Source: Arcuatula senhousia
Lineage: Eukaryota; Mollusca; Bivalvia; Mytilida; Mytilidae
Direction: 5' to 3'
NCBI GenBank assembly: GCA_963971305.1
Contig: OZ020307.1
Location: 14,397,501 to 14,461,500 of the forward strand
DNA length: 64,000 nucleotides
Shown here: positions 3,001 through 61,500 of the stretch, one piece after another
How the letters are laid out: every line of letters starts with the position of its first letter
How positions within the stretch are numbered: the first letter of the stretch is position 1
The notes under the pieces: generated by a model
Database searches by the model: none
Told to the model about the DNA's origin: nothing
What the model saw: only the letters and a program-made list of their open reading frames with translations
Program-made: the position numbers and the translations under genes

Positions 3001-6000
3001 CGTGTTGGGATACCCCCACCCCTTTACCACCCCCTGTGAAACATACATTTATATGTTAAGATTTTTGAGAAATTAAAACACAACAGTGAATCCACAGTGT
3101 GAAACATGTGTAAAATGAATAAATGTACAGATCTATACACAAGTAAATCCCCCAACTTGCAAGATGTTCTTCTTTCTGCAATTACTGAAACATGTAGCTG
3201 AACGATTAGATGAATGAAACAAGGAAATGTGTCAAGATGACACTGATGCCCCGCTGGCAAATAAAATAAAACTGTTATTTTTACCAAATTTGCTAAGTCC
3301 AAGGACCCTAATTTGGGTCAAAATCAGTGGACCGGAACGAAACTCGAACTTGACCTGTAACTCATCATGGTAGACTCACATACCAAAAATCTTTTGAATA
3401 TATGCAAGGATGTGGAAAAAAGGTGCGGAAAACTTATTTTTACAAAATTTGCTAAGTTCAAGGGCCGTAATTTAGGTCAAAATCAGTGGACCGGAACGAA
3501 ACTCGAACTTGACCTGTAACTCATCATGGTAGACTCACATACCAAAAATCTTTTGAATATATGCAAGGATGTCGAAAAAAAGTGCGGAAAACTAAAGTGT
3601 GACGGACGGACGGACGGAAGGACGGACGAAAGGACCGAAAAACTATATGCCCCCCAACAAAGTTGGCGGGGCATAAAAACAGAATCAAACACATTATTCC
3701 ACTCTACTTTGTAGGTGGGGCATAGAAATAAACAGTAAAAGAATACCACTGAAATGGGTTGATGGGCAGTAATGACTTGAATTTGAGATTCTCTGATACA
3801 CTGTTATGTAGATCTGCAGTGAATGTCCCTTTATTGAGAACAGACAGACAGACTGCTAGACTAGGAAGAGCTTGGGGCAATAACTCACACAAGATTGCAT
3901 AGTGGTCATATCTGAAACAGAAAAATCTTATCAAAATATGGTATCAGTGGAAAATTTTGTTTTATTCCGTTTAACTACACATGTATCAGTTTTCTAAGTT
4001 ATATTTTAATTCCAGAATTGATAATCAATTTGTTTGTCTATTTTAGCTATTAAGCAAAAAGAATTTTTATATGTCCATGTCGATATTAAATCTTCTAATC
4101 TCTAAACAATCTGAATGTGTGTGTGTGTGTTGGTGTTTTACGCCCTTTATCGGCGCACCTGGGTCATGTAGGGCAGTCAGTTTTAATGGTGGAGGAAACC
4201 GGAGTACCCGGAGGAAACCACCGACCTTGGGCAGGTAACTGACAAACCTAATCACATACAGTTGGGGAAGAACAATCTGAATGATATTGTTAAGTATATC
4301 ATAGATGTTCCATTCAAAAATCCTGTAATGTGTTTCATACTGAATGGAAAGATTAATTAATTGATTGATTGATTGATTGATTGAAAGATGTCCAACTTTG
4401 ACCACCATGACCACCTTGTTATAGCATATCACCTGATTGTCCAAAATTTTAATTTATATTTTTTCTTGGACTGCTAAACGTACTAATTTATGATAGATTG
4501 ATTAATGTACCAACCTTGACCAGCCTGTAATAGCATATCCCCTGATGGTCTGGAACTTTAATTTTTCTTTTTCTTGGACTGCTAACCACACTAAGTGATT
4601 CTCAATGTGGTATCCTATATTTGTGACATATACATTAGAACCAGTAGCACCTTTGAAAGCACTAGCAAACCAGATGTTTGGGAAGACCTTGGAAAATTTA
4701 TCCCAAATGTCTGAAAGAAAAGAAAGTGTTCACAATTTGTATTGATTATCAAAAACCTATGAACAATTCCCAATTATGTAGCAAATATTTTAGTAGAGGC
4801 AATCATGCTGTGCTTTTTAAAATATCAAGAGTAACCTCCAACAAAATTCTTATCAATGTTAATGTTTTCATTTGATATCTTTTAAAAATACACATGTACA
4901 ATTAGAAAATAATATTGCTTTGTAAGAAAAACTATATTACATGAATATAAAAAATATGATAACCCCATCCTCATGATTAAGTATGGGTGAACCAAGAGCA
5001 ATCTTATCCAGTAAAATGTATTTTAAAGGACCGATATGTTCTTTCAATGTTAGATTCTATGAGATTACTTCTTGATGTTTAAAAAAGTCAATTTCGCATA
5101 AAATTTTATAAACTCAGGGCATTTAAGAACATATAATATACCTGGTGGTAGTAGAAACTGTGTAAGATAATGCCATACCATGGGCTCTACCAACCCTGTT
5201 AATCCAGATTCTAAACAGAAAAAAACAGTATAAAAGTAAGGTGAAAACTAAGGCCTTATCATCTACTGACCCTTTTAAAGAAGATTCTTAATACAAAATA
5301 TACAAAAACAGTAAGATGTTAGAATCTTGAAAGCTGTTTTATGTCACTTTATTTTAAGAACTCTCAATCCTGCCATGCAATCTTACAAAAAATGTGCCTG
5401 AGAATGGTGTAATTATTTTTCTCATGGCTTGTTGCGTAGTGTTAAAATAGCTTAGTTTTAAATGGACACTAAAGTTTTAAACCCACCCAGTAGTACTGGT
5501 AGCTCTGTGTGTCTCATCATGTCATCCCACATTATTGCTGTGATGGAGGGGTATTTCATTTTGATGTAGTTGAGGACTGCTTTACAATGGACAAAGAATA
5601 ACTGTTGTGGCGTCATGCTGTTTTCTGCCATCCTTTTCTTACACTTATCACAGATCCCAATATGGTACACCTGTTGATTAATCAAATATACATGTACATT
5701 TTTTGATTGATATAGGTACAGAAGATACAGCAACAGATAGCAAAATGAACCAAAAAGTAAAAATTATTTTTACCTATGAATGCTTTTAAAGACATCATAA
5801 TTATGCTGATAAATTTATTATAAACAATATAAAAACAAACAAATGTGAATTAAGCATATTCTTTTTGTGGCAGTTTATCAGGGGTACATCTCGATTTTTT
5901 CAAAAAATAAACATGCAGTTTTTTTATTTTTTTTGTTGGTGGGGGTTAAAATGCATTTTTTTGTGGATGTGTTATGATTTTTTTTATAATGGTGGAGGGG

Positions 6001-9000
6001 TCTTAAACAAAGTCCCCCCTCCCCCACATCAATTCAAATGAAACAGCCCTTAAAGTAAACTGACCTCGTCGGCACCAATATGGAACCACCTGATTCTCTG
6101 ATGTAACTCCATCATCTGGTCTATCATCATACAAACAGCTGTCAGAGAATCTGTTAAGAGAAAGGATGGTGATATATTTTTTATGTCTACATGAGGTAAA
6201 AAAGTATTGACTTCTGTGTTGAAATGTATATGATAGGTATACTATTCATGAAAAATTTGAACTTTTATAAACAATTTATATCATGAAAATGTATCTTAAA
6301 AGTGGTTTGAAAGAACTTTCAAGAATTAAGCCCCAACAATTTTTCACAATAATTATTTTCTTTGAAAGGTCTAATCTTTAATTTTTTTTTAATTTTTGTT
6401 GTTGTTTTTTTTTTGGGGGGGGTGGGGTGGGGGGGGGGTGTCAAAATACAATTTTGACAGATTTTCAAAATGACAAAATATCTAGATTATATGAAATCAG
6501 GCCTTCACATTCAGTGCAAGCATCAATTTTCTGTGAGGTACCAATTTTCATGGGTCCACAAATCACAAAATTTTTTAATCCCCAAAAGTAAAGAAATTTT
6601 GCAAAGATTTTCTGTAAAGACAGTTAAAATCATGAATTCATTGTATGTATTTTTAGAAATTAAATTTCTTTCATGTATCTTTACTTCTTTTAGGAAATCT
6701 GGAATCATTATCTTAATGATCTAAAGAACACCTTCATTGGAAGGACACAAAGCTATTTTTTAGTTATCTGTTAAGTACAATGTTCTCCTTTTTTTTATAC
6801 AAATAACATGAAAAGAATAGGCCATGAATGTTAAAAGTTAAAATTACCTGGATTGGAAGGACACAAAGCCATTGGATAGTTTGGTACTTCTCTAAGAGAT
6901 CTAAATTTTTCATGCTTCAACACAAACTACAAAATTTACACAACAAATATAAACATGTATATCAAATCTGTATTCAGTTAAAATTAGCTTCTTGTTAACA
7001 TTCTATAACCACATATGATATTCATTCTATTTTTTTTTGTATATTATAACCATTACTTCTTCCAAAAGATCAAATTCATATTTTTTTATAGAAAATAACT
7101 ACCATGATTATCATGATTATAATGCTAAGAATCTCACAATACACCTTTCCACTCTGCTGTCTATCATCCACTGATTAGCCAATAGCATCTTGTAAATTGA
7201 TCACATGTGTAAACAAAAGATAAGAGCACATGGTGTCCGACATAACCTCGGACAAGCTGTGATATCTTGCTATACAAACTATAGTAAATTAGGCTAATTT
7301 CCTAAGTCATTTATCAAATAATTAACCATGAAAACTTGATAATTTTTAGAGATAGTAAAATTTCACCATTACTTTGTATGCTTAAGTAAAAAGAAAATTT
7401 GAAAATAATATATTACCTTAGTAAAAAGAGGGTTTTATTGATTAGGTATAGACCATTAAATCCTTAATTTAAATCTAAATACTGTTCAATTCTAATTGTT
7501 TAAAATACAAAATAAATTAATATTTACCTTAGTGAAGCATACATACATGTTCTTTTAAATGATACATGTACAATTAAGTCTTGAAAAGACTAAATAATTT
7601 CAATTGATTGTTAAAAATATTAGAATTTAAAAATTGAATTAAAGTTTGTTTTTAAGTGTTTTATTAGAATTACAGAGTGTAATTGAACTTCTTCTGACAA
7701 TGTTGGAATTCTTTAACTGTAAAATTTGTTAAAACTTCACTTAATGTAAATGTTTGCGTGTTCAAATGTTATAATCTTCATCTTAAAGTTTAATAATTGT
7801 ATAATGAGTGAATTTTATTTATTGTTGTATAAATTCATATAAAATTTTCCTTTACATTCTGTTTTTATACTTATTAATTTTTTTTAATTTGAAAAATTAG
7901 ACATCCATGTCTGTATTTTATTATTGAATCAAAATTGTAAAAAGGTTAAAAACAGTACTAGTACATGAAGCCCAGCATGAAGCATATAACTGACTGATTC
8001 TAGTTAATTTATTACATTATAAAACAATATTTCATATTCATTTAATGTATACTGCAATCAGTGTGACGACTTTAAGTACTTGTTACTCTTAAAAGTATGT
8101 TTATTCAACTGTTTTAAATCATGATCAATTTCTATTTCTCCTTATCATTATCTATAGCAGCATCCATTTTGTTGATTAGCTTGTCCGAGGAAGCTGCGTT
8201 GTTATGCATTCTTATCAGTGGGAGGGGCATAGCAGCCAATAGTGGAAAGGTGTATTTGATACAACAATTAGTTTATAAATTTATAGTGATATATTTTCAG
8301 AAACTTAACTTGAATTAGCTTTATCTTCCCAATGGATAAAAAAGCTTTCTTGCCCCTTGTTAACAAAATAAAACAGCATATGAAGCCTGATAAAGTGTTT
8401 GGTTTTAATTCCTGATCAAATTTGAGCTTTGGTATTTACAGAATTATGGTATCAAGTTAATCACACACAAACTCTAGTAGTGTTTAAGAAGGTCACGCCT
8501 GAACAGGTCACGGACCTTGTTAGTGATATAGGTCATGTTTTGATTGAAACTGCCCGAGATACTTTTGGAGTTGCAAATAAAAAATATCTTAACAAAGATA
8601 ATAAACCCCGGTTTGACAAAGCTTGTAAGGTTAAGCGCGACGAATTTCACGCCACTCGTAACCTGTTTAAAGTAACCAAGTCGGCGTCACACAAAAAAGA
8701 AATGAATGTTAAAGCGAAAACATATCGTCAAACCTTATCTAATAGTTATGCAAAATACTCAGAAAGTTGTGCAAATGAGTTGAGATCCAGTTCTAAACAC
8801 GATCCCAAGTCATTTTGGAAGATTTTGCATAAATATTCACATGCCAATAAGGAATCGCCGGAAATTGATATTGATACCTTCTATGAATACTTTAAAAACC
8901 TAAACGCAGGAGACGAATCCACAGAAAATGATATAAATGTTGACGATATGTGCGACAATCCAGTTTTTGATGAATTATTAAATGGTAAAATATCTGCAAA

Positions 9001-22100: not shown

Positions 22101-25100
22101 CTGCACAGGCTGAAAAACAATGGGAAATACTTAAATTGTCCCCAAATATCTCGTACCATCAATCAAAATTATACTATCTTATGGAATTGTTTTTTTCTAG
22201 TCTAAGAGTTAACACCACCTTTTAAAGAAATGTCTTTTTATCAACATATTATACACCATATATATTTTGATCATTGAAGAATCAGTAGTTCTGTGGTTAC
22301 CTGCATTAACCCATATTTGACCAATTGTTTTTTCGGTGCTCTATCATGTAAATAATGATCAGAAATCCCTTGGGTGATTTATTTGCTTTACAACTTAATC
22401 TAATATTTCAGGTTGTTTGTACATATTCTTTTGTTAGTCTTAATGTATGTTATTTTGAAGATTCCATGGATGAGGTGTGGACAGCAAAAGAGATTTTATC
22501 TCAAGATGCGGACATATCAAATTATGTTTCTGTCCAGGACAAAGAAGGATCCCCATCTCCTGATTCTTCTTCCACAGAAGCATCTCAACCGGATATTTCT
22601 TCTACAGAAGCATCCAAAAATGATTGCTTAACAAGATTGGACGAGGAAGATTCAGATGAATGTGACGATGAAGATGACCAACTTAAACCCATTACCAAGG
22701 AAGTGGTCATGAAGAACGTGAGTACATGTATTTGAAAGTGCTACAAAAAGCTAGAAAGGATTGTTTTAATTATGGTACGTCTGTCCATCCAAAATGTTAC
22801 AAGATAGGGCATCTAATCTTTTGACATATTTTTTGTTTAATTATTGTTTTTATTTAGGTAATATATATTTTTCATCCACTTTAAAGTTTTACAAATATAA
22901 ATCAATTTGTCTGTTACATGTATTGAGGTCTACATTATGACAAAAATCTTTCAGTACCTACAGATTAAAGAGCATTTACAAGGCATGATGAATTGTGAAC
23001 TAAACAATTGGTAAGTTTATAGATGGATACTCTTCATGGGTGTTAGATTTTACATATATTAATTTTTCTAAAATTCTTGATCAAAGATCATAGTTTTTAT
23101 GGCCAAACCATTACGATGTTTAAAGGTTTATTAAATCTAGAGAGTCTGGTTTACCATGGTCAAATTATGCCTGTACCAGTTCAGGACTATTGCAATCTAT
23201 AATATTCATAGTATGTCTTCCTGTCTTTTCTCTTGTACAGTGAGATTGATCCTCTAAGTTTGGTTTAATCTCCATTCATAATTCCATTACACACCAATAA
23301 GAAAATAAAAACCAAAATAGAATAAAAACACACAAAAAATATGTAATTATAAAAATTATAAGAATTGAATATTTGTATTTTTGTGTGTAAAATTGTTGAC
23401 TACATGTATTGCACATTCTTAATGAAGCACGCTAGCACTTCATGTTAAAATGTGTGACCCAGGTCAACAGTTTTACACACCAATGAAACATCAGAATGCA
23501 AACATTCAATTTTTAGATATATGGACACAAATAGAGTGAATAATTATGCATAAATAAACTTTTGATTTTATAGCAATGAAGAACATCATCAAAGGCACCA
23601 TGAGTTTGTTCAAAAACCTACTGAAGTTTATAACAGGGAACGATCTACGTTTAACTTTGGAGTAGATGTTGTAAAACAAAGGGTAAAGTTGATTAGTTGA
23701 TGCCACTGTACATTGCAGTCATATCAAAATCAAAGTCTTACTGCAAAGTGTAAGACGAGAAATTTACACATATGTTGCATGGCATGTAAAATCTAATATC
23801 ATTGGTCATAAGTATTTTTGAAAATGGGAATTGTATTTGATCTTTACCATAAAATAAAATCATAAGGTCTAAGAAGATTTTACAACAACACATTTGGATA
23901 ACTGCAAAATAAATATTTAATTAGTTGACATGTTACTCTCAAAAAGGCATAATCAGAAAAGAGATTTTTCTTGTTATTTTTTACAACCATAGCATATTAG
24001 GACATCAACTTCAATTGACTCTCAATGAAAGTAAACATATCATGGCATTAGTTCACCACTTTAAGGTTAAAGTTATAAGATGACTGATAAATTCAATCAT
24101 TAACCTGTCAACAAGATCAAATATTTATTAATTCTTTCAAATAAATAAAAAAATGAAGTTTTAATATTCCATTATAATATTTTCAGGCTGTACAATACCT
24201 GCAAATGAGGTTAATGAAGGAGATGATTTACACTGTAAGAGATTATAAGTAAGTCAAAAATGCACAAAATTTATGACCTTGCCAAGTTGTCGATCTAAAG
24301 TTTTGTCTTTCAATATTATAAAGGGTAAAGAGTTATATGTTGGAAACCCATTTGGTTTTAGTAATAAGTTACAACTTATATATACTATTTTTTGAAAAAC
24401 ATGAAAAAAAATAAAACTTTCTTTTCTAGATATTAAAAAAACTATATATTTCTAAAAAATTTCTTGCCAATTATCTCCCCTACAAATAGAACTTTTCATC
24501 AAGCTTGATAATTTTTGAATGTCATGTTATACTTATTTCATCAATAAATAGAATTAAAAATTAAATGTTTCATGTTGTGTGCTTTTTTAAGTAAATGAAG
24601 CCCATTATAAATAATAAACTATTTGTCACAAAGCTGATAAAGGCATAAATTTACGCTAAGCATCAAGAATACAGATATGATTTTTTTTTCCACTGAAAGA
24701 CAACTGATTGTCACATTGCTTGTTTATTAATTGTAGACGCCCTTACACCAACAAAAGTAATCTTCTGAGGAATGTGTACAACAAAGAATTGGTGGACATA
24801 TTTAAAACATACGAGTAAGATTTAGATTTATATTAATTAGATCATTTTTTAACAATGGCAATCCTGTCATAATCAATGCAGATTTGCTTCCTACTAGAAT
24901 ATATCATGTTATACTAATTGTATTCAGAATGTTATATTAACATCCCAGGGGCTGTTGCTTTTTTATCATAACTTGGGTTCTTTTAAGTCAAAACAGTAAC
25001 AACTCATGAGATTAAAATAAAATTTAATTGATGAAATAATCTATAGTTTTAGCATTGACGGGTTCATTTTTTATCTATTATTTTATTATACCCCCCCACT

Positions 25101-25945
25101 TCAAAAGTGGGGGGTATATAGTGATAGGGGTGTCCGTCCGTCCCTCCTTCCGTCTGTCCTTTCTTCCGTTACACTTCAGGTTACCCATCTCTTATCCGCA
25201 ACTCCTCCTAAACCCCTTGATGGATTTTCATGAAACTTACACACAATCTTTGTGACATAATGTAGATGTGCACCTACTATTTTAAAATTTGATCAGAATG
25301 ATTTTTGGAGTTTCCCATAGCAAAACATGGACTTAGCCATTCGCCTACATGGGGGTAACCATCTCTTATCCGCAACTCCTCCTAAACCCCTTGATGGATT
25401 TTCATGAAACTTACACACAATTGTTGTGACATAATGTAGATGTGCACCTACTATTTTAAAATTTGATCAGAATGGTTTTTGGGGTTTCCCATAGCAAAAC
25501 ATGGACTTAGCCATTCGCCTACATGGGGGTACCCATCTCTTATCCGCAACTCCTCCAAAACCCCTTGATGAATTTTCATGAAACTTACACACAATCTTTT
25601 TGACATAATGTAGATGTGCATCTCCTATTCTAAATTTTATCTGATTAATTTTTTTGGGGGGTGGGGGTATTTATTTGTGAGCTGCGGCTCACATTGTTGG
25701 TCTGTATTGTTCATTAGGATTTCTAAGAAGTTTTTTAAGAAGTATTTAAGGCATTATATTTATTTTTCAGCTTATCATCCAGCTACCTGTACTACATTGT
25801 TTACAAGGAGTTCTTGGTAGCATTACTTGTGGAGAAATCTGCTTCATCATATGCTGAAGCCAATACAATTTGTAAAGCAACAGAAACAAACATGAGGGAA
25901 GCAAGAAAATCATCCAGAATTTTTAGACAATTACTAACTAAATAG
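16146..25945 (+). CDS. CARF/ALS2CR8-family protein (9 exons, complete)
   Basis: Exons: 16146-16296, 17587-17750, 18429-18545, 22412-22717, 22955-23010, 23574-23682, 24187-24248, 24737-24814, 25771-25945. All junctions are GT-AG and the sum is 1218 bases (405 residues plus TAG). The family call rests on ADGIPFVVVGNEELECHYGP (residues ~74-93) and KKKGCPAVIKVKVVIKFPEYK split as GCPAVIKVKV (127-136) and KFPEYK (139-144), which match vertebrate calcium-responsive transcription factor at DGIPF, ECQYGP, CPA and KFPEY. A basic KKRRR stretch (114-118) may be a nuclear localisation signal. Exon 4 encodes an acidic Ser-rich linker with two SSTEAS repeats. The C-terminal half resembles the VRKQLR region only weakly. 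Vertebrate CARF is about 700 residues, so this is a short relative; target genes and calcium response cannot be inferred. Intron 3 is almost entirely satellite. Confidence 0.8.
17861..17900 (+). repeat. Perfect 20-bp tandem duplication
   Basis: AATAAATGTATGAGTTAGAC occurs twice in a row in intron 2 of the CARF-like gene. Confidence 0.95.
18810..18976 (+). mobile_element. Possible retroposon 3' tail with AATAAAG and (ACTT)n
   Basis: Ends CAAAATAAAG-TTTTACCAACTC followed by ACTT units, like the tail at 9394. It sits just before the satellite array. The 5' limit is uncertain. Confidence 0.35.
19008..22037 (+). repeat. Satellite array 1 (~63-bp monomer, sense orientation)
   Basis: About 3.0 kb of head-to-tail copies, roughly 48 by length. 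Landmarks in each unit: CACTATACAAGTTCTATAAC, TCATCACTGACTGTAGG, TAGGTACACTACAAC, CTCTCTCTTAG. A shortened ~43-bp unit with AGGTGCACTATAC recurs near 19887, 20501, 21239 and 21853, spaced 614, 738 and 614 bases, showing higher-order repeat structure. It fills most of intron 3 (18546-22411) of the CARF-like gene. The same monomer in opposite orientation forms the array at 26532-31107. Confidence 0.97.
25087..25692 (-). mobile_element. Double-hairpin modular repeat, copy b
   Basis: In reverse orientation in intron 8 of the CARF-like gene. Read on the plus strand it opens with the ACCCCCCC...GGGGGGTAT hairpin (25088-25116), then a GTCCGTCCGTCC block, then three modules starting with CCATCTCTTATCCGCAACTC at 25184, 25361 and 25533. 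It ends with hairpin GTGAGC-TGCG-GCTCAC (25677-25692). On the minus strand each module contains AAGTTTCATGAAAATCC and GTTTAGGAGGAGTTGCGG, matching the copy at 47316-47830. Confidence 0.75.
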
Positions 25946-35425: not shown

Positions 35426-38400
35426 ATGAGAAGCCATATAAGGATAAAAGAAGAGACGGATGATCATCTTTTATTGGTCAAAGAACCAGGGTTGTATGGT
35501 TATGCTTTGCTAGCAGGTTAGTATTAATTCCGTGTCTTTATTGTGCTTGAAGTTATTTGTACTATGATACATGTGTATGTACAAGCTGAATCACAATTGC
35601 AATGTCTTTACTGAACACAGCAGTTATTTGATTTATAGCTACTAAACTTTCTGCCATTTATTAATGCTTCGTTATAAATCAAATAATGATATTCCTTTAG
35701 ATTTATTAGTGAATTGAAAAAAAAAATATCTAAAAGTTAATGAAAATGTATAAACATTAAAATTTGTGACTGAACACACTGGATTTCCACCTTAGATCAA
35801 ATACACCACAATGATAAGATAGAAGGGAAAAACTATTGAGAAGAAGTCCATAACCAATCACTTCATAAAAAGGTCACAAAGCTTTACAGAATAAACCTGA
35901 TATTGCAGATTTACTTCACTATCATGACTATTTTTATATACATGATATATAATTCATATACATTGTTATTCTTATTTTCCATCTTCTTTCAGCATTTACA
36001 GCCATTGGGTATGGAGCTGCATCATACAGCCAAGGTAACTTGTGCTGCATACTTAAGTGGCTGTCTGTGAATTCATTTTTTGAGCCTTAAAGGACAGGAT
36101 ATCCCACCACCAGTGGCTAACATGAAAATCAGTTATATTCAACCCTATTCCATGATAGTCATGAAGAAACATGAATTACCCCAAAAAAAGTTGCAAAAGA
36201 AAATAATTGAAAACAATCAACAGTTATTAAGAAAACCTAATTTAGAAGTTCTATCTTATATTTAATATATAAAGCCAAATTTCTTGGGCTAAATATCAAA
36301 ACAGTACACAACTTAACTTATTATACTACATATGACGTACTTTAACAAAACAATTTATTTCTATTCTTATACTTTATTGGTTTATGGCAACAAGTAAAAA
36401 TACACCAAATATTTTGCAAAATTATGAATGAAAACAATATTATGAAACAAAAAAGTAAAATATAATGGGGGCTAATATTGAACTTAAATATGCATATATC
36501 TAAAGTATTAACAATTCAACGTATGATTAATAATCTTATTTTGTTGTAGACCATTGTTTGTGGCAGTTAACTTATATATCATTTGGTGTGTTCCTAGGAC
36601 TGGCCTGTATTGATGATTATGAGGTATATTGGTTGGAAAGGTTGAAGAGCTGTGTACACATGTTAGAAAAAAGATAACTACAGTGTAAAAAAACATATCA
36701 CATCACATACATGTATGTTGAAACCCCCAAAAAGCTTAAGAAACAATGTTTTATTTTATATCTTTTTTTATGTTAAAATTTGGATTAAAATAAAGAAAGA
36801 ATGTGTCCATGGGACACGGATGCCCCCGCTGGCCTCAAATAAAAAGTTGAAGTGCAACAGGTCTGAAAGTCGCTTAGGACGCATAGTTTATCATACTAAA
36901 CCATCCTACCAAGTTTCAAATCAATCCCATGTACAGTTTCTGAGAAAAGCTTGACGGAAATTTTCATGTCGATTTTGGTATCGATCCAGCCCCAAACAGG
37001 AAGTAGATGTCCGACAGGTCTAAAATTCGCTTAGGACATATAGTATGTCATACTGAACCATCCTACCAAGTTTCAAGTTATTCCCATTGACGGTTTCTGA
37101 GAAAAGCTTGACGGAAATTTCGTACGGACGTACGTACGGACGGACATGAGTAAAACTTAATGCCCCCCCGACATGTCGTCGCGGGGGCATAAAAAAGAAT
37201 TGCATGTATTATCAAAAATGCACACAGTTTATTAAAAGTGAAATTTGTACTCTGCAGACCCTGTAAAACAGTTTTTTGTAACAAAATTATTTAGTTAAGG
37301 TATGCAAAAAAAAATTCTTGTTATGTGAAGTATTTTTAATAATTTATGTTCTATTTATATAGGAATGTCATATAAATAAAAAGGAAAAGGAGGCCAAATT
37401 GATAAGAATGACAGTGTGGGACAAAATTTATAACCTTATAACCAGCAAGCCTCCCCATACAGGTTAGTGGTAAAACAAAAGCCATTAGAATAATTTCAAA
37501 ATAATCTTTACTTTGAAATAATTATATTTGAATACAGTATATTATGGTCAGAATACATGTATAGGGTTTTTCATTTTTGCATGCAAAATCATTATAGCTA
37601 GTCATATCTGGGATAAAGTTGAATACTGTGGTTTCATTATTATTTGTTGGGTATCAATTTTCATTGTTTTTGTGGTTGGTCTTGAACCATGAAATTTGAT
37701 ACCCCACAAAAAGGAACTGTTACACTGATCTGTATGCTGCAAAACCAAAGAACCACTCATTTAAAATTCACAAACTGATTCTTTTTTATCAAACCATGAA
37801 AATTGGTACCCACGAAAATAAATGAATCCACAGTATCCTTATTTCTATGTGAAATAAAATTGTTGTAAAAAATAGAATTCATCTGTCACTTAATGATAGA
37901 TATTTTAAGTTTTAACAAAAATAATGTCATATTAGCTCAATTAAAATAAGATATAGACTTTAATATGCATGATCAAATACATTAAAAACATAAAATCGAG
38001 TCAAAGTGCTTTCAAAATTAAATCTTTTTATGTGATAATACAATATGCAAGCTGATCATATCTTTTTTTCTTTTCTCAGTGGTATTTGGGACAGATGATA
38101 TTATACGAGTACATGTAAAAGAAGAGACAGTGACCTACTTTGGTAAAGGTTACCAGGTCGTAATGTTTATGAACTCTGGAATTGATATAGGTGTCACAGA
38201 ATCTTATATTTTTGGAAATAATAGGTAAATTGTGTTTTAAAGATAAGAGGAAACAAAAATGAAAAACTGAGTAACAACAATAACATGTATAAGTCATCAA
38301 TACTTCCTTTTTGGTGACTTTATAATAATACACAATAGCATATGGTTGTTTGTTTGTTTGTGTTGTTGGCACATGCAAAATGGTTTCATTTGTGTCATTA

Positions 38401-41267: not shown

Positions 41268-41624
41268 ACTTGATGAGAAGTGCATGGAAGTAAGTTTCAA
41301 CTTAGATCTCTCTTTTTTGTCATGTTACTTTACATGCTTTAATGCTGGTTTTTGTAATGTTTAAATTTCTATAAAGCAATGATTTTTTGGTTAAATTATA
41401 CATAATTCATCTTATTCTCCACATAGCTATTGGTAAATGCAATGTCTTTCAAATATTGTATTGCAATAAACTAACAGTATTTAGACAATGTTGTTTTACA
41501 ATTTTGTTTATCCAAGGAGTACAGATTTTTTTGGGGGGTGGGGGTGACGTAAAGACTTTTTCAGTGAGCAAATCAAGGTGCATAAATTTTTAGTGTTTTT
41601 TTACATCAATTGTTTGCATATATC

Positions 41625-42062: not shown

Positions 42063-42197
42063 AATCAATGTGTTCTTCCAAGCTTTTTGACATTAAAGAT
42101 TAAAGATTTCTTGTCTTGACATCATTTTCAAGGACATAATTTTTGGTCTATAGCTGTTGAGAACATTTTTTTTTCTTCCATCTTGTTTACTGCATAC

Positions 42198-43320
42198 AAG
42201 AGGCTCCCAGAAGCCTGAATCGCTCACCTGACATATGTGCCTGAAGTAAAGGTTATAGGGCAAAATCTATTTGACATTGAAAGGGTCATAAGTTTAATAA
42301 AGGGGTCATCTGACAATATGGTGGATCCTAAGGTGCTGATCACTTTTGTTCTCAATCAAAATTTAAAAATCTGTCACCCTTTTTGAGTTATTAGCAAAAA
42401 AATGCAGTTTAACCCATTGTTCAATTTTTAGCCACAGCGACCATGTTTTACAACCAATCAAAAATCCCCACATCAGTTCTATACACCTAATGCTAATAAA
42501 CAACAATACCAAGTTTGGTTGCTATTGGACTAAAAGTGTCAGAGGAGTTAACGTTTTCAATGTAATGAGGAAATGCTTTTTAAATGCTCAATTTTGACGT
42601 TCTAAGGGCAATAACTCCTTAAAGGAAAATTTCTACAACTTTGACCCTATTACATATATATTTTGTAGATCTTGATGCGCTTACCAATATGCAAGTTTTC
42701 AAGATATTGAGCTAAACAGGTGCAAAATTTGCAAAAAATCCACAAAAAGGGCAATAACTCCCACATGGGTTGTTGGATTTTCTTCAAAATTTCAGAGCTG
42801 GTAGATCTTGAAGTGCTGATCACTTTTGTTCCAATCAAAATTTTAAAATATGTCACCTTTTTGAGTTATTTGCAAAAAAAACTGCCATTTACCCCTATGC
42901 TCTATTTTTAGCCACAGCGGCCATGTTTTATGACCAATCAAAAATCCCCACATCAGTTCTATACACCTAATGCTAATAAGGGCCATTCCAGAATTAATTA
43001 TATGGGGGGGTCGGAAGGCACTTAAAATAAAATTTTATGGGTGGTGGTATTTTTAGATATTTCTCAAATGCAACATAAGGAAAAAAAAATTAAAATTTTA
43101 TGCATGGTGGGTATAAAAAAAAGTGCCTTCCGACCACCCCATACATTTATTTCTAGTATAGCCCTAAACAACTATACCAAGTTTGTTTCCAATTGGACTT
43201 AAAGTGTCGGAGGAGTTAATATTTTAAAAAGTTTACGGACGGCGGAGGACGGGCTACGGGCGGACGACGGACGCCAAGTGATGAAAATAGCTCACATGAC
43301 CCTTCGGGTCAGGTGAGCTA
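42198..43320 (+). mobile_element. Double-hairpin modular repeat, copy d, with nested MITE
   Basis: Opens with hairpin AGGCT-CCCAGA-AGCCT (42201-42216), then CGCTCACCTG. Modules contain GGGCAATAACTCC, CACATCAGTTCTATACACC and ACCAAGTTTGGTT. It closes with a GGACGGCGGAGGACGG block and hairpin GCTCACATGACCC-TTC-GGGTCAGGTGAGC, split here by the loop, ending at 43320. A MITE interrupts it at 42979-43165. Same type as 59555-60417. Confidence 0.8.
42979..43165. mobile_element. MITE nested in copy d (AGGGC...GCCCT ends)
   Basis: AGGGCCATTCCAGAATTAAT and GGGGTCGGAAGGCACTT are inverted at the other end. The uninterrupted sequence CTAATGCTAATAAACAACAA at 42487-42506 shows the empty site, so insertion left at most a 2-3-base duplication. 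The copy at 56951-57153 is the same family in opposite orientation. Confidence 0.8.
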
Positions 43321-44160: not shown

Positions 44161-44654
44161 TAAAAGTTATTTACGCATCAAATATAAGCATAAGAACAAT
44201 TTATATTATATAATAAAATGATATATGTGCCTGAAGTAAAGGTTATAAGGCAAAATCTATTTGACATTGAAAGGGTCATAAGTTTAATAAGGGGGTCATC
44301 TGACAATATGGTGGATCTTAAGGTGCTGATCACTTTTGTTCTCAATCTGTCACCCTTTTTGAGTTATTAGCAAAAAAATGCAGTTTAACCCAATGTTTTA
44401 TTTTTAGCCACAGCAGCCATGTTTTACGACCAATCAAAAATCCCCACACCAGTTCTATACTCCTAATGCTAATAAACAACAATACCAAGTTTGGTTCCTA
44501 TTGGACCTAAAGTGTCAGAGGAGTTTACGTTTTCAATGTAATGAGGAAATGCTTTTTAAATGCTCAATTTTGATGTTCCAAGGGCCATAAAAAGTTATTT
44601 ACGCATCAAATACATGTATAAGCATAAGAATAATTTATATTATAAAATAAAAAT
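44161..44654 (+). repeat. Secondary copy of 42231-42610 flanked by ~60-bp direct repeats
   Basis: The interior 44221-44589 is a close copy of part of copy d, lacking both hairpins and a ~15-base stretch. It is bounded by AAAGTTATTTACGCATCAAA ... TTTATATTAT on both sides (44161-44220 and 44590-44654). Confidence 0.8.
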
Positions 44655-46504: not shown

Positions 46505-49500
46505 TCATGTGTTTCTATCTTTTTGAGATACAAAATACAAGGTGTCAGAATCTTTATCTACATTGATCTTTTCTGATTCTTTTTGACTTAATACATCTTT
46601 AAAATCATTATACAAATCATGAAAATTAACATCAACATTTTTATCCTTCCATACATTTGTACCATGATTTTTCTCTGTATGAAATCTCTTGCCCTTTTCT
46701 GTATTGTATATTCTGAGGTTGTCGTACTCAGCATAACCATAGCCAGATGTTCCAAACCCCACAAAGCCGGTCAGAGGGACATTTAGTATGCCTGACTCTA
46801 GAAGGTACTCTCCGTTCAAATACACCTCTATTTGATACCCCTATAAAATGATTGAATAGGAAATTATTCAACTTATCATAGAACACAAATGTACAAAGAA
46901 ATAGAACAAGTTACTTATGGCTATCATGCCCCCTGCTGCATTAGAATTAAATCCCTAAAAACTAGGTACTGCAAACAGCAATGCAGTCAGAAAAATACAC
47001 GTTTAAACAGAAATTGGATCAAATTTATTAGGCAGTTTCAGGGATATTGCATCCATATAGTTTTTAACCTAACATTCACAAAATAAAAAATGACCCATAA
47101 GTCATATGTGTCTGTTTAGTAACAGTTTGGTAATGGACGCATTTGTACCTTTGGTAGCACGTAATTAATTAAAATACTGTAGTATTACTTATTTTTGCAG
47201 GGTATTTTTTTTTTTAGATTTCATGGTCATTATTTTTTTTTGCAAAATTTAATTTTGTTCAAAAGAGATATTATATATGAGATAAAAAGAATATTAGAAC
47301 AAAACAAGTAATACTGTGAGCGAGCTCACAAAAGGATACCCCCCCCGCTACATATTGGACTCTGTACTGCCAAATACCTAAAGTCCAATTATCACCCTAA
47401 ATGATATCAAAGAGCAATGAAAAATCTTCATGCACATCTACATATGATGTACTTTCTTCATGTAAAGTTTCATCAAAATCTGTCGAGCAGTTTAGGAGGA
47501 ATTGCGCTTACGAGGTCTCCCATTGAATACTATATTTAAACATTCTAAGTCCAATGATCTCCCCTGAATGATATCCGAGAGCGATGAAAATTCTTCATGC
47601 ACATCTACATATGATGTACTTCCTTCATGTAAAGTTTCATCAAAATCCATACAGCGGTTTAGGAGGAGTTGCGCTTACGAGGTATGTGGACAGACGGACA
47701 GACAGACAGGGTGATTCCTATATACCCCCCCAAACTTTGTTTGCGGGGGGTATAAGTATGTGGAGAGACGGACAGACAGACAGGTGGATTCCTATATACC
47801 CCCCCCAAACTTTGTTTGCGGGGGGTATAATTAAGTACTTGTTAAGTTTTTAAGCTATTTTTAAGCAGCAGCAAACTTAGCTTCAAAAAATAAAATCACA
47901 AAAATAGTATTTTTTAGAGTAACTTTTTACCTGTAGAATAAGTTTAATATTGTTCCACCCATCCTTTGCAGAAGGTGCATGTCCTGTTTTGAGTACTGAT
48001 TTCCCACCTATTCAAAATAAAGGGTAGCACAAATAAAGTCAAAGAATGGTAGCACTAGAATGATTCACAGAATGGACTCTTTATAATAATTAATCAAAAC
48101 TAGAATTATGGGTGTGAACTCACAGCTTGCAGCTGTATTGAACTCTGTATTGGAAAAAATTTAAGTTCAATCATCTCCCCTAAAGGATATTTGAGAGTAT
48201 GAAATTTCTTCATGTTCATCTCTATATTACCTCTTTCATGTAAAGTTTCATTGAAATCCGTCCAGCAGTTTGGTATGAGTTAAGTTTACAAGATATGTTG
48301 AATTCCTATATCCATCTACTCCTAGAATCAGAGTATAATAATGGGATTGATTCTAATTCTAAAAAGCTTAGTAAAATTATTGACTTAATAGTTTCTCATG
48401 AGTTGAAAGACATTGTTTGTTGGTGATTGATGTACCAAGACCGTTGAGCAAAGTTCTTTGTTTGTTTTTTTTTTTTTTTTTTATATGAGCGGTTTGCTCA
48501 ACATTATTTAAAATTTTCTTGCATCATTATAACTACAAAACCCATAAAAATCTATCATATGTCCTGATACTATATCATACCTATGTCATTGGTTAAGTTG
48601 TACATCTTTGTTGATGGGTTTAGGTAAAAGAAGACCCCTAGAGCACCACTGAGTCTGGTGCCTCCTCTGTCTACCCGTGCTGCAAGGAATATCCCATCTG
48701 TACCATTTATCTCCCCTGATCTTACATCCATAGATACTGTAACGTCTTCCCTGGTAATCATCATAAAAAACTTGGTGATATTCAAAAGTAAATAACAAGC
48801 ACCGGTATAAAAAAAATATAACTAAATTCACTTTTGTTAGCACAAAAATAATACTTATTAACCAGAGTATACCATTGAACAATACTTAAATACTTTTACT
48901 TTTTCATGACTCAATATTTACATCTGATTCTTATTTTGATAAGACTTTTAAATTTGACATAAACACTTTCTAGTTGCCAAGCAGTATATTTTCTTTAAAA
49001 TTGTTGATCATTTTTTCTTACAAATCTTTCATCTCATTCTTTTTAAGCATACAATTATAGGAAAACGACAAAGATGATTGGAAATATAAATATGATAAAT
49101 GTGCATATTTAACAGATAAAAAAGCTATTAGTAGTCTTATACAATTGTTCTTATAGTATAGAGAAACTTGCCAAGAATAATCTCCTATAAGATTGACTGT
49201 ACGTTTGAGGGTGTCTGCTATATTCCAGTAGACAGGTTGTTGTAGCACCATCTGACGTAAAACATTTCTATTAACAGGGTCACCTGAGTCATGGACCTCA
49301 AAACATCCAAGCTGCTGAGCCATGTACTTTGGTTGTTCTGTTTCTGCATACTCTGTAAAAGATTTGTAGATTGAATTTGGAGGGTGATTTTCCATGGATG
49401 TTCCCGGCAATCTAAAATATACAGTAAGCAGGAATAAGATGATTTAGGGACATAAAATTGCTTTATACCATATAGTACTAAAGAACAAAAAATACATGGC

Positions 49501-55500: not shown

Positions 55501-58500
55501 TACCTCACGAAATCTTGGAAAATAAATTGCTCACAAAAATTAGTTTGTTTACAGTATCTAAAAAGTACTCACCCTGGCCCAGCATCCTGCCCCAATGTTG
55601 TCATTAAAGGTACTGAAGTCCTCTGAGGCCCACATCTGTTTCCCTGTTTTATAGGCCAAGTCTGTAGATTGGGTTCCTGGGTAATGTACACTAAAATAGC
55701 AAACAAAGTCTTCTCTTTAACATGTTTAAAAATCCTTCATGTTTATAGAGATACATGGACATTTATTAATGAAACACATCCACAATTGGCTTGCAAAAGA
55801 CTCATGACATTATAAGATTTTGAACTAACATCCATGATTTACTTCACAAAACTCATACGGTTGAGAGGTTAAAATTAATGGACTTTGGCTCTTTTTACAA
55901 AATGTGCAACAACATACAAACCCATACTTATTTTAAAGTAAATAGGTTGGACAAAAAAATTATAATTTGCTGCTAATATATAACCTGAGTAAAATAAAAT
56001 GCCAAACAACTTTTTCAAAGCTTCAAAAGCTTTGAATAAAACTAAAATTTCTATCATTTATTTCTCTACTAAGTCAGAGAAATAAATAGTTTTGTAAATG
56101 TTAAACCTTTTTATGATTTTGATCATTACATTTTGATGGCTGTTCTATGTGTGTAGAAATTTATTTCCATGACTTTCAAATATCATACATTGAATAAGAA
56201 ATAAATATTGAATATTCAAATGTACAATTTTTCAAAGTTGACTATGAATATAGCAAAAATTATCATGCCGACAAAATTAGGATGTCTAATACAGTACATA
56301 TATATCTTTAGTTTTGCTGAAATTTTGACTTTTAAGAATACATACCCAATAATTTCAATAGCATCGTTGAGTTTGGGATCTTTGACCATATCATTTACTA
56401 TTTCAAACCCTCCGTCTACAGCTACTATCTTCACATTGTGTAAACCATGTTTGTCCAACAGATATCTTAGAACCTATTAATAAAATACATGTATTAGGCT
56501 TCTTCAATTATTGTCTTCAAAAATTCATATATCAAAATAATAAATGTGAATGTTCACTGCTGCATCATACATGATTTGATACAATTTATATTGAACAGAA
56601 ATGACAACTAAATGACAAGGGTTTAGCATTGTGTACTTTTTCATAAAAACTTTAAAATTACACCAAAACATGTAAAATATCAATGTAACTAATATACATC
56701 ATTCCTATACCTTAAACTACCGTATAGCCCTACATTTTTGCTATATTCGCCACCATTACTCTAGCGCACACTTTGTATTGAGAATATTATTAAATCACAA
56801 AAATAAATGTCCGCATATATAACAGCTTAGTCAATAGGTAAGAAATCACGAAATTTGCCACTTCGAAAATTACCCGCAATACAGTATTCACTGGTAACAC
56901 CAAAGAATTAGAACTAGCAGGAAAATTAACCTTCCCAAACAAGTAAGTTCAGGGCTATTCCAGAAATAAATGTAGGGGGGGGGGGGGGTCAGAAGGCACC
57001 TTTTTTATACCCACCATGCATAAAATTTTAATAATTTCCCTTTATGTTGCATTTGAGAAATATCTAAAAATACCACCACCCATACAATTTTAATTATAGT
57101 GCCTTCCGACAACCCCCCCCCCCCCCCCATACAATTAATTCTGGAATAGCCCTCAGTATAATATTGTTGCAAATTCATGCTGTTGGTTGCCATTATAATA
57201 AGTTGTGTTGTATGTCTTCTTTGTACTGTTTTCAGTTTCTCCTGGTTTGTTCTTTGTTTTTGTTTGTTTTGTTTTTTAAGTTAAAGATCTAAATACCATA
57301 CTCAAACTTCCTTGCTTCTTAAACATTCAACAGTTCAATTTATTTAAAAAAATGGATCAACAGATTACTTAGTAAAAATATAATAATACCTTGATGTATG
57401 TAGTATTGTATGCCAACTCATTCCATATCTGAAATTAATAAATAATGGATTCTTTTCATCAATTCATATGTTTCACATTTCCATAATTTAAAGCAACATA
57501 AAAGAAACTAATAACAACTAAGTAATGTGTTTAAAAGTAATGTTTTCCTAACTCTTCACAGATGTATTCCCCCTTTTTTTGCCAGCTAGGACATAAGTGA
57601 TCAATTTTTAGAGTACAGTTTACTCAACAGTAAAACTGCATTGAAAAAAAGCTACATCATAAAAGATATTCTTTAACTCAACATTTACCTTACTTTTCAG
57701 ATTTAAATGACAACCAGCATGAGGGTCTACGATGGATACGTATGTCACCTGCATCTTAAGAGCGTGTCTATGAGAAAACCATGCAAAATCCAAAAATTTG
57801 TCCAGATGCAAGAATTTCAAATCTACAAAAGGGATGGGGCAACTAAAAGCATCCCCCTTGAAATTCCTTTTCGCAAAATATTTTTTTCGAGAAATTCAAG
57901 ATGGCCGACCTACGGACCTTATAAGGATAACTGAGTTTCTTGGAAAAATTAGCCATATTGAACAGTGCTGAATACAACAATTTAACTTTTTAATAATTTA
58001 TTTTTTCAATATTTTTCTCCAATAATCCAAATTTGAAAGAAGAATTTTGAAAGGGTCATGTTTCTGCTTTTTAATTCTACAAAAATTTTGAAAATCATTA
58101 TTTCCATTCCCCAGCAACCATAGGGGGTAAATGGGGCATTTTCCAAATTCCTCAAAAACTTCAAAATATTCCATTTTAAACATGATCGTTTGTGAAAAAT
58201 AACATTTTTTAATTCAATTTGCCATACTATGCAGAAAATTGATGCATTAAAGTACAAAATAGCAAAAGGAATTGCTTTGCATATGAATTTTGGCATCTTT
58301 ACAAGTCCATGAATTAGGGGCATGCGCCAGTTTTGGCAAGACAATCCCATATTTTCAACAACTTTGGTTAAAGTATGAAAGTATTTTTTTCCAATGAAAA
58401 ACCATTTTTGACAAATGCAAAGACAGTTGGTTACATTAAAAATAACTGTATATATATTGGTGGTGTAGAAAAAGTACAAACGAAGATGCAAAAAAGTGAT

Positions 58501-61500
58501 TTTTTTAAGAATTAACAAAAAATAAAGAAATTGTCAATTTTAGGTGAACAAAGCAGATTTACTAAAACTCAGGTCAAATTAATTGAATATGTCCCCAAAA
58601 GAATCCTTTTTGGTGGTTTGGAATTGATATATACAAAGTAGTATATTATTGTTTTCCTCAGGGCAGATGCATTCAAAAAGTCATCTTTGGCCATTTTGGG
58701 TAACTGCCAAAATGAGCTCCTGGACCATATTTGTATCAGTTTTATAACAATGTTGTTTAATTAAGCTACAATCCTTTTTGCTATTTCTGACGTATGTAAA
58801 AATGTTTATCTAGACCAAAAATATATAAAATATCTGTCAAGGCATTACTTTTTAAAAATTGGTCAAAAATAGCCAAAAACCTCATATGGCTAAATTTAGC
58901 TATTTCTCCTTAAAAAAACCAAGTCAGACAATTTTTTGAAAAAAAGTGTACCAGGGAGAGTAATTTTTTATGCTTCTTTTCACTTGTTCTTTACTTTAAA
59001 TTATTGTCTCAGATACCCTCAAGAAAAAAATATTTTGTTTTTTTCAGGAGGTGGTGGCCTCTTCTAGTCAAATGATGTTTGTTCTCAATTTTGACTATAT
59101 TTTTTCAAGGTATCTCTCGACAGATTCTTTTTATATTATGTTTTCACATGCTTATCTGTACATACTTTAGAAAACTTAAAAATAATGTTTTCTGAATTGA
59201 ACAACTTTTTAATAACAATTATACAAATATGGTCCAGGAGCTCATTTTGGCACTTTGTCGAAAATGGCGGAAGATCACTTTTTGAATGCCTGTCTATCGA
59301 GAAAAACAATAATATGTCACTTTGTAAATATGAATTCCAAGAGACCTAAAAGGATTCTTTCGGGTACTAATTCAACTTATTGGACCTGAGTGTTAGTAAA
59401 TCTGCTTTCTTCACCTAAAATCGACAATTTCTTCATTTTTCCTTAATTCTTTAAAAAAAATCACTTTTTTTCATCTATGGTTGTACATTTTCTGCACCGC
59501 CAATGTATATATAGTTATTTTTATTGTAACTCACTGTCTTTGCATTTGTCAACAAGAGGCTCCCAGGAGCCTAAATCGCTCACCTGGTCTTGATGTCAAC
59601 CCTATATTTTGTATAGCTAAATGAGCTGAACATTTGAGCAAGCAACAGTTTTTTCTTCATCTACTATAGTTTTCATTCTATAGGCCAAAAACACGAAAAA
59701 CAGTTATTTTAGGGGCCGTAACCCCTATAAGGGGTCATCTGACAACTTCGACCCTATGGAGACTTTTGTAGAGCTAAATGAGCTGAACATTTAAGCAAGC
59801 AACAGCTTTTCTCTATCTGCTATTGTTTTCTTTCTATAGGCCAAAAACATGAAAAAACATCATTTTAGGGGCTGTAACCCCTATAAGGGGTCATCTGACA
59901 ACTTCGACCCTATGGAGACTTTTGTAGAGCTACATGAGCTGAACATTTTAGCAAGCAACAGCTTTTCTCTATCTGCAATAGTTTTCATACTATAGGGCAA
60001 AAACATGAAAAAACGCTATTTTTCACCTTTAAGGGGCTGTAACCCCTATAAAGGGTCATCTGACAACTTGGACCAAATGGAGACTTTAGTAGAGCTTTTA
60101 ATGCTGAAGCAGCAGGGTGGCATCAGATTTCATCTATCTCTTATACTTTTTGATTTACAAGCCAAAAACAGTAGTCTGACCCCCCTGGTCTATTTTTAGC
60201 AACGGCGGCCATGTTTTTCAACGAATCAAAAATCCCCACATCAGTTCTGTGAGGGATACCCTAAGGTACCATCAGACCAAATTTGGTTTGAATCTGTTCA
60301 GCCGTTTCAGAGGAGAAGAAGTTTGAAGAAAAGTTAACGACGACGGACGACGACAACGGACGACGACGGACGCCAAGTGATGGCAATAGCTCACATGGCC
60401 TTTGGCCAGGTGAGCTAAAAAGGGGTTTTCTTTAGCAAAAAATACTTTCATACTTTTACCAAAAGTTGTTGAAAATATGTGATGGTCTTGCCAAAACTGG
60501 GGCATGCCCCTAATTCATTGATTTGTAAAGATGCCAAAATTCATATGCAAAGCATTTCCTTTTGCTATTTTGTTCATTAATGCATACATTTTCTACATAT
60601 TTTGAATTTCTCGAAAAAAATATTTTGCGAAAAGGAGTCTTAAGGGGGGTGCTTTTGGTTGTCCCATCCCTTTTGTAGATCTGAAACTCTTGCATCTTGA
60701 CCAAATTGCATGGTTTTCTCATAGACACGCTCTTAAGATAAATGGTAAACGGGAAGTTAACAAGTAAAAGGCATAAAATCACTTATACCAAAAAAGTACT
60801 ATTGGAGAAAGCTACATGCCAAATATCAAGACACTGTGACAGTGTGACATGAAGTTTCCCAGAAAACTGGGACAGAAATTTTAGTGGATACTGCAAGATG
60901 AAAGATAGTGCCAAAGTAACCCCTATATAACAAGGAAGACATACCAGAAAAATTTGAAGTCGCAATGGTCCTGATTGATACAGGCATTTCAAAAGAAATT
61001 GTGGGTTAAACCAGGTTTTATGGCGAGCCATACTAGTCCAAATCAACAAACATAACAAAATCTTTTTTTAACTATGCAAGCAGACTTTGGGTACAGACAT
61101 AAATGTTAACCTACCCCAACAAAGTTGATATCCAGATCATGATATTTCTTGGCACCCTCTATCCACTTAATAACGTACATTGCTGTAGTGTCGACATTGT
61201 AATAGGGATTATGTGTACCATTACCAAGCCATCCAGGCCATCCCCATGGCAACCCATACAACAGAATATCTGGATTCCTCTGTAGAAAAAAAAAATTAAA
61301 AATACAGACTTGAATTTATATTAAATTTTGTTATTATTAATCTTGAAGTTTGGTGTAAAGTTTAGGATCATAATAGTGAAAGGGTACATGTAATTATTTA
61401 TGATCAAATTTATATTTAAAGAATTTTTTTAATTCAATAGAAGAAAAGATGATGCAATTAAAAGAAAATATTTTTAATGAAATTTTAGGTAATATCACAA

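What the first reader, a model, noticed from the sequence alone, without database searches (positions are those of the whole stretch)
3229..60417. Modular elements with a structured hairpin at each end and compensatory stem changes
At least five elements (3229-3675, 25087-25692, 36803-37191, 42198-43320/47316-47830, 59555-60417) share one plan: 5' hairpin, one to three ~160-180-bp modules, a GACGG-type block, 3' GC-rich hairpin. Stems differ between copies at paired positions: GTGTCA/TGACAC versus GTGTCC/GGACAC at the 5' end; TGACCC/GGGTCA versus TGGCC/GGCCA at the 3' end. Co-variation means the structures, not just the sequences, are maintained. There is no ORF and no long TIR, and almost no target duplication. 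That suggests single-strand or rolling-circle type mobilisation (Helitron-like) or an RNA role. The class may be known in bivalves; the paired changes deserve attention.
Basis: partly seen in the sequence, partly recalled or inferred. Interest (0 to 1): 0.78.

Follow-up and report, generated by a model that had tools for sequence, protein, structure and literature searches.

The report
Rolling-circle transposons with matched hairpin ends
The elements are members of a known kind of jumping DNA that copies itself by rolling circle and is common in shellfish and flies; their two ends carry matching short codes that change together, which fits an older proposal of how copying knows where to stop.

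Summary
In detail: six (not five) elements with a hairpin at each end, tandem modules and paired stem changes lie at the stated places. Turned round, the plan is T-run, 5' terminal repeat folding on its neighbour, GTCC/GTCY microsatellite, tandem repeats (156-174 bp in five), inverted copy of the 5' repeat, 3' hairpin, often CTTGT: the published plan of non-autonomous Helentron/Helitron2 rolling-circle transposons (HINE, DINE-1, Pearl), where compensatory stem changes are already in print (PMC2374699, PMC3627910). Added here: 22,126 matching 3' ends of one family in the genome; in 20 of 20 scored elements the two letters left free by the filter pair with the element's own other end, in three types; both-sided changes at 3 of 13 pairs of the 5' hairpin; two empty sites with nothing extra but TT. 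No transposase gene was recognised in the window; the genome search for one was sent 26 times and never answered. New member of a known kind; the three-way covariation makes a stated hypothesis testable.

The parts
3647..3674 (-). E1 5' hairpin; 5' ATIR ATGCCCCGC at its start, preceded by TTTTT
3601..3635 (-).
3275..3593 (-). E1 two 159-bp tandem modules
3229..3254 (-). E1 3' ATIR (3246-3254) and 3' hairpin GTGTCA/TGACAC (3229-3243); CTTGT follows after 5 nt
25088..25117 (+). E2 5' hairpin with 5' ATIR ATACCCCC
25185..25653 (+). E2 174-bp modules, 2.7 copies
25655..25693 (+). E2 degenerate 3' ATIR and 3' hairpin TGTGAGC/GCTCACA (25676-25693); no CTTGT
37160..37190 (-). E3 5' hairpin with 5' ATIR ATGCCCCCGC
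36832..37120 (-). E3 two modules 157 bp apart
36803..36829 (-). E3 3' ATIR (36820-36829) and 3' hairpin GTGTCC/GGACAC (36803-36817); no CTTGT
43289..43319 (-). E4 5' hairpin with 5' ATIR GCTCACCTGA
   Evidence: as L004
42201..42232 (-). E4 3' ATIR and 3' hairpin AGGCTTC/GGAGCCT (one T.G pair; 42201-42216), followed directly by CTTGT
47796..47828 (-). E5 outer 5' hairpin with 5' ATIR ATACCCCCCGC
47722..47753 (-). E5 second, tandem copy of the 5' end (74-bp period, 94% matches)
47381..47683 (-). E5 167-bp modules, 1.8 copies
47315..47351 (-). E5 3' ATIR and 3' hairpin TGTGAGC/GCTCACA (47315-47330); CTTGT follows after 6 nt
60388..60416 (-). E6 5' hairpin with 5' ATIR GCTCACCTGG
60337..60367 (-). 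E6 GTCC-type microsatellite
59607..60096 (-). E6 156-bp modules, 3.1 copies
59557..59588 (-). E6 3' ATIR and 3' hairpin AGGCTCC/GGAGCCT (59557-59572), followed directly by CTTGT

Best explanation
Three families (ends ATGCCCC..., ATACCCC..., AGCTCACC...) of non-autonomous rolling-circle transposons of the Helentron/Helitron2 kind (HINEs) in what is most likely a bivalve genome. Inferred mechanism: a Rep/helicase encoded elsewhere nicks at the T-run before the 5' ATIR and peels off one strand; the 3' hairpin signals the end of the copied strand, and the 3' ATIR can pair with the 5' ATIR of the same strand by displacing the partner arm of the 5' hairpin, bringing both ends together for cleavage, joining and insertion at a T-run. 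Shown here: anatomy, orientation, element-specific pairing of both kinds, a sharp 3' end in family C, two empty sites with nothing extra but TT. Inferred: the enzyme, the single-stranded intermediate, the strand exchange.
For: The scan finds 4 of 6 elements, 0 in 40 shuffles; the unchanged rule on 80 kb of new sequence finds 2, 0 in 60 shuffles. Across the six elements the own 5'ATIR-3'ATIR assignment is the lowest of all 720, likewise 5'ATIR with its own hairpin arm; the control arm-3'ATIR is not (89 of 720 as low). In 20 of 20 C-family elements scored, the two free ATIR letters match the own other end in three types (13 CCTGG/CCAGG, 6 CCTGA/TCAGG, 1 CCTTG/CAAGG); 0 of 100,000 permutations reach 20. 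5' hairpin: 3 of 13 pairs changed on both sides, covariation score 0.118 reached by 0 of 500 shuffles and by no slid version. Letter after CTCTTG is T in 37 of 37, TT in 35 of 37; a T-run of 5 or more precedes 25 of 29 5' ends. Empty sites: target CCATTTTTGAG, filled CCATTTTT[...]TTGAG; target GCCCTTTTTGTGG, sides GCCCTTTTT[and ]TTGTGG. Head-to-tail junction CTCTTG-TT-AGCTCACC at one place, seen in the overlapping loci L025 and L026.
Against: No Rep/helicase was recognised in the window (86 of its 88 ORFs of 70 aa or more scanned; a gene in short or decayed pieces could be missed) and the genome search for one (PF14214) was sent 26 times and never answered, so no autonomous partner is shown. 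E2's ATIR is degenerate and pairs better with E5's 3' ATIR than with its own. CTTGT follows the hairpin in only 4 of 6 window elements, two of them of one family. Covariation inside the 3' hairpin is thin: of 100 listed copies 1 double compensation, 13 wobble-only, 10 broken. In one search two of five measures are weak: pairs changed on both sides are reached by 22 of 500 shuffles, further pair types by 272 of 500. The 20 elements are related, so the permutation counts few lineages many times; 8 of the 10 ATIR letters were fixed by the filter, which would not count an element with a mismatch there.
Confidence: 0.9

Rival explanations
1. Cut-and-paste MITEs with short imperfect TIRs; the TT on both sides is a 2-bp target duplication.
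For: The empty sites fit a 2-bp TT duplication arithmetically. Pearl was first described as a MITE and DINE-1 was discussed as one (PMC7492417, PMC2374699, passages read).
Against: The inverted repeats are not symmetrical: at the 5' end the repeat is terminal, at the 3' end a separate hairpin and often CTTGT lie beyond it. MITE TIRs need no own hairpin at each end, and co-variation with a third segment is not expected of them.
Confidence: 0.06
2. RNA elements: the hairpins work in a transcript (SINE-like retroelement, or a structured RNA kept at each locus).
For: On the element strand of the 3' hairpin, transitions that make a G.T pair outnumber those that break a pair (16 versus 4 in the 100 listed copies, the compensated copy left out; counted), as expected of a strand that folds; but 9 of the 16 are one position and may be one inherited lineage, and single-stranded DNA would give the same.
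Against: No poly-A or A-rich end in the flanks seen, no target duplication beyond TT, and at Rfam's gathering scores only one hammerhead, outside the elements. Four decayed ends in the window fold at -1.2 to -4.1 kcal/mol, against -11.2 and -14.7 for two intact 5' hairpins and -4.1 for one intact 3' hairpin, so the structures are not kept up in place.
Confidence: 0.03
3. These are Helentron-type elements, but the paired changes come from one arm being copied onto the other (gene conversion, template switch) and not from selection on structure. This can be true together with the main explanation.
For: Inverted repeats can correct each other; only a few independent change events are seen (three ATIR types in family C).
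Against: The 5' hairpin arm of family C keeps a mismatch inside the ATIR (T opposite C8 in 29 of 31 rows of A2, G in 2) that the distant 3' ATIR does not have, so the arms are not plain copies of one another.
Confidence: 0.2

Closest known systems
Cg_HINE non-autonomous Helentrons of the Pacific oyster (PMC7492417, passages read), with Pearl (oyster, blood ark), DTC84 (Donax) and MgE (Mytilus) named there
   Same: 5' subTIR plus complementary IR, GTCY/GTCC microsatellite on the same side, satDNA-like central repeats, 3' subTIR then palindrome; related flanks with unrelated repeats; autonomous partner unresolved there too
   Different: End sequences not compared (supplements not readable here). 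The passages report that subTIR pairs with one mismatch prevail in most of the oyster elements; here 20 of 20 match over 10 letters, but 8 of those were fixed by my filter, so this is no clean contrast
DINE-1 of Drosophila (PMC2374699, passages read)
   Same: GTCY microsatellite, central repeats, TT insertion, 3' stem-loop whose stems differ between species, there already called compensatory; subTIR ATACCC... resembles the start of family B
   Different: Covariation there is between species; here within one genome and over three segments
Helitron2 (PMC3627910, passages read)
   Same: Asymmetric terminal inverted repeats, hairpins at both ends, compensatory changes in two related elements, and the proposal that 5'ATIR-3'ATIR pairing breaks the 5' hairpin to mark the replication end point
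   Different: Rep/helicase-bearing members are known there; none shown here
Canonical Helitron1 / Helraiser (PMC4778049, passages read)
   Same: 3' hairpin; in Helraiser it acts as a terminator and circles are formed
   Different: Here no 5'-TC / CTRR-3' ends, but a 5' hairpin and ATIRs, and insertion at a T-run

Membership tests
Helentron/Helitron2 non-autonomous elements (HINE) | 5' terminal repeat (ATIR/subTIR) at or near the 5' end, forming a hairpin with the following nucleotides | tested here: met
   6 of 6 window elements; intact in 27 of 31 aligned 5' ends of family C
Helentron/Helitron2 non-autonomous elements (HINE) | 3' ATIR subterminal, just before a 3' hairpin | tested here: met
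   6 of 6, E2 degenerate; 20 of 20 scored C elements, the filter presupposing 8 letters
Helentron/Helitron2 non-autonomous elements (HINE) | insertion in TT / T-run without further target change, shown by empty sites | tested here: met
   two empty sites, family C only; the second is mainly pieced from different copies, L025's own element showing only CCCTTTTT on its 5' side; T-run and TT counts. Families A and B: flanks only
Helentron/Helitron2 non-autonomous elements (HINE) | GTCY-type microsatellite near the 5' end and tandem central repeats (usual, not obligatory) | tested here: met
Helentron/Helitron2 non-autonomous elements (HINE) | autonomous partner with the same ends encoding Rep/helicase (with endonuclease in Helentrons) | tested here: inconclusive
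   none recognised in the window; genome search PF14214 sent 26 times, never answered (first, last)
Helitron1 (canonical) | 5'-TC start, CTRR-3' end, insertion between A and T | tested here: not met
   5' ends are T-run or TT, then AT.. or AGCTC..; 3' ends in family C are CTTG|TT
MITE (DDE type) | terminal, symmetrical TIRs flanked by a target duplication | tested here: not met
   3' repeat is subterminal, a hairpin lies beyond it; only TT on both sides, which alone would not exclude a 2-bp duplication
SINE / retrotransposed RNA | A-rich or simple-repeat tail, variable target duplication | tested here: not met
   flanks; empty sites

The most novel reading that the evidence does not exclude
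The 5' hairpin is meant to be imperfect. In five of the six window elements (E2 excepted) one ATIR base at position 8-10 is unpaired in the 5' hairpin but paired in the 5'ATIR-3'ATIR duplex, so the 3' end can displace the hairpin arm by strand exchange; the ATIR then is an element-specific address that lets one enzyme tell which 3' end belongs to which 5' end, and new address types arise by coordinated change of three segments.
Probability: 0.25. Interest if true: 0.6.

Novelty: new member of a known kind. Interest (0 to 1): 0.3.

Why it matters
The kind and even the compensatory changes are in print. What is useful is that one genome holds over 20,000 3' ends of one family with at least three ATIR types, enough to test by sequence alone the 2013 proposal that 5'ATIR-3'ATIR pairing unfolds the 5' hairpin and marks the end of copying. 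It would also help to find the unknown autonomous partners of bivalve HINEs, which the oyster study could not link.

Tried and rejected
Relatives elsewhere: five pattern scans of viral contigs found nothing; one scan of genome contigs gave 3 bacterial records, L001-L003, which share nothing with the window at E 0.001; I read only L002. Homology of the modules: of 15 element pairs only E2-E5 and E4-E6 stand out, so the families share a plan, not modules, and E1 and E3 share ends but not modules. RNA role and MITE: rejected as above. Strand preference from G.T wobbles: suggestive only, dominated by one position.

Weak or contrary results: the 3' hairpin inside family C is poor evidence for covariation: of the 100 rows listed (of 22,126 matches) 72 have the common hairpin, 4 only loop changes, 13 wobble-only changes, 10 broken pairs, 1 double compensation (rows picked out by eye, the 28 departing ones classified). 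Rows dropped: one search scored 20 of 39 3' ends; the other 19 had no 5' end in reach under the filter. That filter also left out L007 and L013, whose own 5' hairpin looks like a 3' end to it; searches show them as matching (A/T and G/C). Overlapping loci were collapsed by sequence. L012-L042 were drawn with patterns that fix the partner of ATIR letter 10, so type CCTTG could enter only by chance, as it did in L009; L004-L011 were drawn by likeness to E4.

Full report
What is there. The window (64 kb, 32% GC) holds six elements: E1 3229-3674(-), E2 25088-25694(+), E3 36803-37190(-), E4 42202-43319(-), E5 47315-47828(-), E6 59557-60416(-). By their ends they form three families: A (E1, E3), B (E2, E5), C (E4, E6). 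Read in the true direction the plan is: T-run (TT in family B), 5' ATIR that folds on the next nucleotides, GTCC/GTCY microsatellite, tandem modules, 3' ATIR, 3' hairpin, often CTTGT.

Orientation and chance. A scan written for this plan, run on both strands, hits E1, E3, E5 (twice, because its 5' end is duplicated in tandem) and E6, all on the minus strand, and nothing in 40 local dinucleotide shuffles. It misses E4 (T.G in its 3' stem) and E2 (degenerate ATIR). The same rule, unchanged, on 80 kb next to the window finds two more elements, one like E3 and one of family C, and none in 60 shuffles. CTTGT within 12 nt after the 3' hairpin occurs in 4 of 6; from its frequency in the window the chance would be about 5e-7, but it was noticed first and tested afterwards, and E4 and E6 are not independent.

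Pairing specificity. DNA duplex energies for all 36 combinations show that the true 5'ATIR-3'ATIR assignment is the lowest of 720, and so is 5'ATIR with its hairpin arm, while arm versus 3'ATIR is not special (89 of 720). Exchanging partners inside a family weakens pairing in families A and C, and only slightly in B, where E2 prefers E5's 3' repeat. For the 3' hairpin 4 of 720 assignments tie, because E2 and E5 have identical stems and E4 and E6 the same 3' arm.

The genome. The own genome answered three searches. It has 1,036,387,356 bases in 1803 contigs. The family C 3' end with four free letters occurs 15,909 times; with the hairpin left free 22,126 times, against 0 for the reversed pattern. 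From the 39 loci fetched by then plus the window, 39 family C 3' ends were read and 20 had a 5' end in reach under the filter; all 20 have the same 10-letter ATIR at both ends, in three types (13, 6 and 1). Eight letters were fixed by the filter, so the test rests on two letters; 0 of 100,000 permutations give 20 (mean 10.3, maximum 18). The hairpin arm follows the same letters (CCAT, TCAT, CAAT) except in L024 and L032, where it is damaged. A 31-row alignment of 5' hairpins (14 distinct rows) has 95.8% of cells paired, 3 of 13 pairs changed on both sides, and a covariation score of 0.118 reached by 0 of 500 shuffles and by no slid version (largest 0.033); the count of pairs changed on both sides is reached by 22 of 500 shuffles and the count of pair types by 272 of 500. 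Relatedness means these numbers are not probabilities; the safe statement is that three ATIR types carry coordinated changes in three separate segments.

Ends and insertion. After CTCTTG the next letter is T in 37 of 37 and TT in 35 of 37; 25 of 29 5' ends follow a run of five or more T, 21 exactly five. Two empty sites: the element in L034 sits in a family C-like module whose uninterrupted form is in L016 (and, less alike, L040); and GCCCTTTTT|..|TTGTGG against GCCCTTTTTGTGG in L011. The second site is pieced mainly from different copies (5' sides L025 and L040, 3' sides L025 and L027); L025's own element shows CCCTTTTT before it. In both, TT is the only extra. A head-to-tail junction with just TT between the ends is seen at one place (overlapping loci L025 and L026).

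How it most likely works. The anatomy is that of Helitron2/Helentron elements as described in PMC3627910 and PMC4067079 (passages read): ATIR at the 5' end within a hairpin, 3' ATIR before a 3' hairpin, insertion at TT or T-rich sites without target modification. In Helraiser, a canonical Helitron, the 3' hairpin works as a terminator (PMC4778049, passages read). PMC3627910 proposed that 5'ATIR-3'ATIR pairing destroys the 5' hairpin and sets the end point. The three-way covariation here is what that proposal predicts. In addition, five of six window elements leave one ATIR base (position 8, 9, 8, 10 and 8 in E1, E3, E4, E5, E6) unpaired in the 5' hairpin that is paired in the ATIR-ATIR duplex, and in family C that mismatch (C8 opposite T) is in 29 of 31 rows and persists through the three types. 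I read this as support for a hairpin that is meant to be displaced; inheritance explains it as well.

What it is not. No ORF scanned belongs to a Rep/helicase family: of the 88 stop-to-stop ORFs of 70 aa or more, 86 were scanned (two in satellite arrays left out), and the matches with E below 0.001 are galactocerebrosidase pieces (PF02057, PF21708), one RVT_1 and one ALS2CR8. Rfam at its gathering scores gives only a hammerhead outside the elements; a laxer search of 39000-43000 adds one sub-threshold match, also outside. Decayed copies in the window (5' ends near 42.05k, 46.3k and 48.3k, a 3' end near 48.1k) fold only weakly (-4.1, -1.3, -1.8 and -1.2 kcal/mol; intact E1 and E5 5' hairpins -11.2 and -14.7, intact E5 3' hairpin -4.1), which fits selection during transposition and not a role in place.

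What is known. Oyster Cg_HINEs, Pearl, DTC84 and MgE have this make-up or a comparable one (PMC7492417, passages); DINE-1 stems that differ between species were called compensatory in 2008 (PMC2374699, passages) and Helitron2 stems in 2013 (PMC3627910, passages). A search for Helitron + compensatory + inverted repeat + hairpin listed 4 papers; I looked into two of them. I did not see a genome-wide test of the three-way covariation in the passages read or in the listings, but papers of subscription journals are mostly not in the library.

Verdict. The open and valuable question is the autonomous partner, which could not be searched because the tool did not complete.

Noticed in passing
42980-43164: A MITE with ends GGGCCATTCC.../GGGCTATACT... 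inserted in E4, flanked by TAA on both sides; the uninterrupted form is in E4's own other module near 42490-42520, so the TAA duplication is shown. Related copies at 39513-39703 and 56947-57158. Harbinger-like by its TSD (recalled).
   Followed up: partly
40964-41007: Type I hammerhead ribozyme above the Rfam gathering score (37.2 bits, gathering 34), the only one in the window; animal retrozymes carry such motifs (PMC7229834, start of abstract seen in a listing).
   Followed up: partly
44164-44650: Internal piece of a family C element (44219-44590, 91% to E4) without either end, flanked by similar direct repeats of roughly 60 bp on both sides. Unexplained.
   Followed up: partly
19008-22037 and 26537-31101: Two large arrays of a 63-bp satellite, in opposite orientation by their consensus units, on either side of E2.
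   Followed up: no
47682-47830 and 3647-3723: The 5' end of E5 is duplicated in tandem (74 bp, 94%); E1 also has a decayed second 5' end about 50 bp upstream of its own. Helitron tandems with truncated inner copies are known (PMC7492417, passage).
   Followed up: partly
46508-54520: Pieces of a galactocerebrosidase gene on the minus strand (PF02057, PF21708); E5 lies between two of them.
   Followed up: partly
8426-10989: Broken retrotransposon ORFs, one with a reverse transcriptase domain (PF00078).
   Followed up: no
L047 about 710-1202 (- strand): A degenerate family B element in neighbouring sequence: 3' hairpin TGTGAGC-AATA-GCTCACA, then GATTTACTTGT; the loop differs from E2 and E5 while the stem is identical. 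Another 5' end of this kind lies near 410-441.
   Followed up: partly
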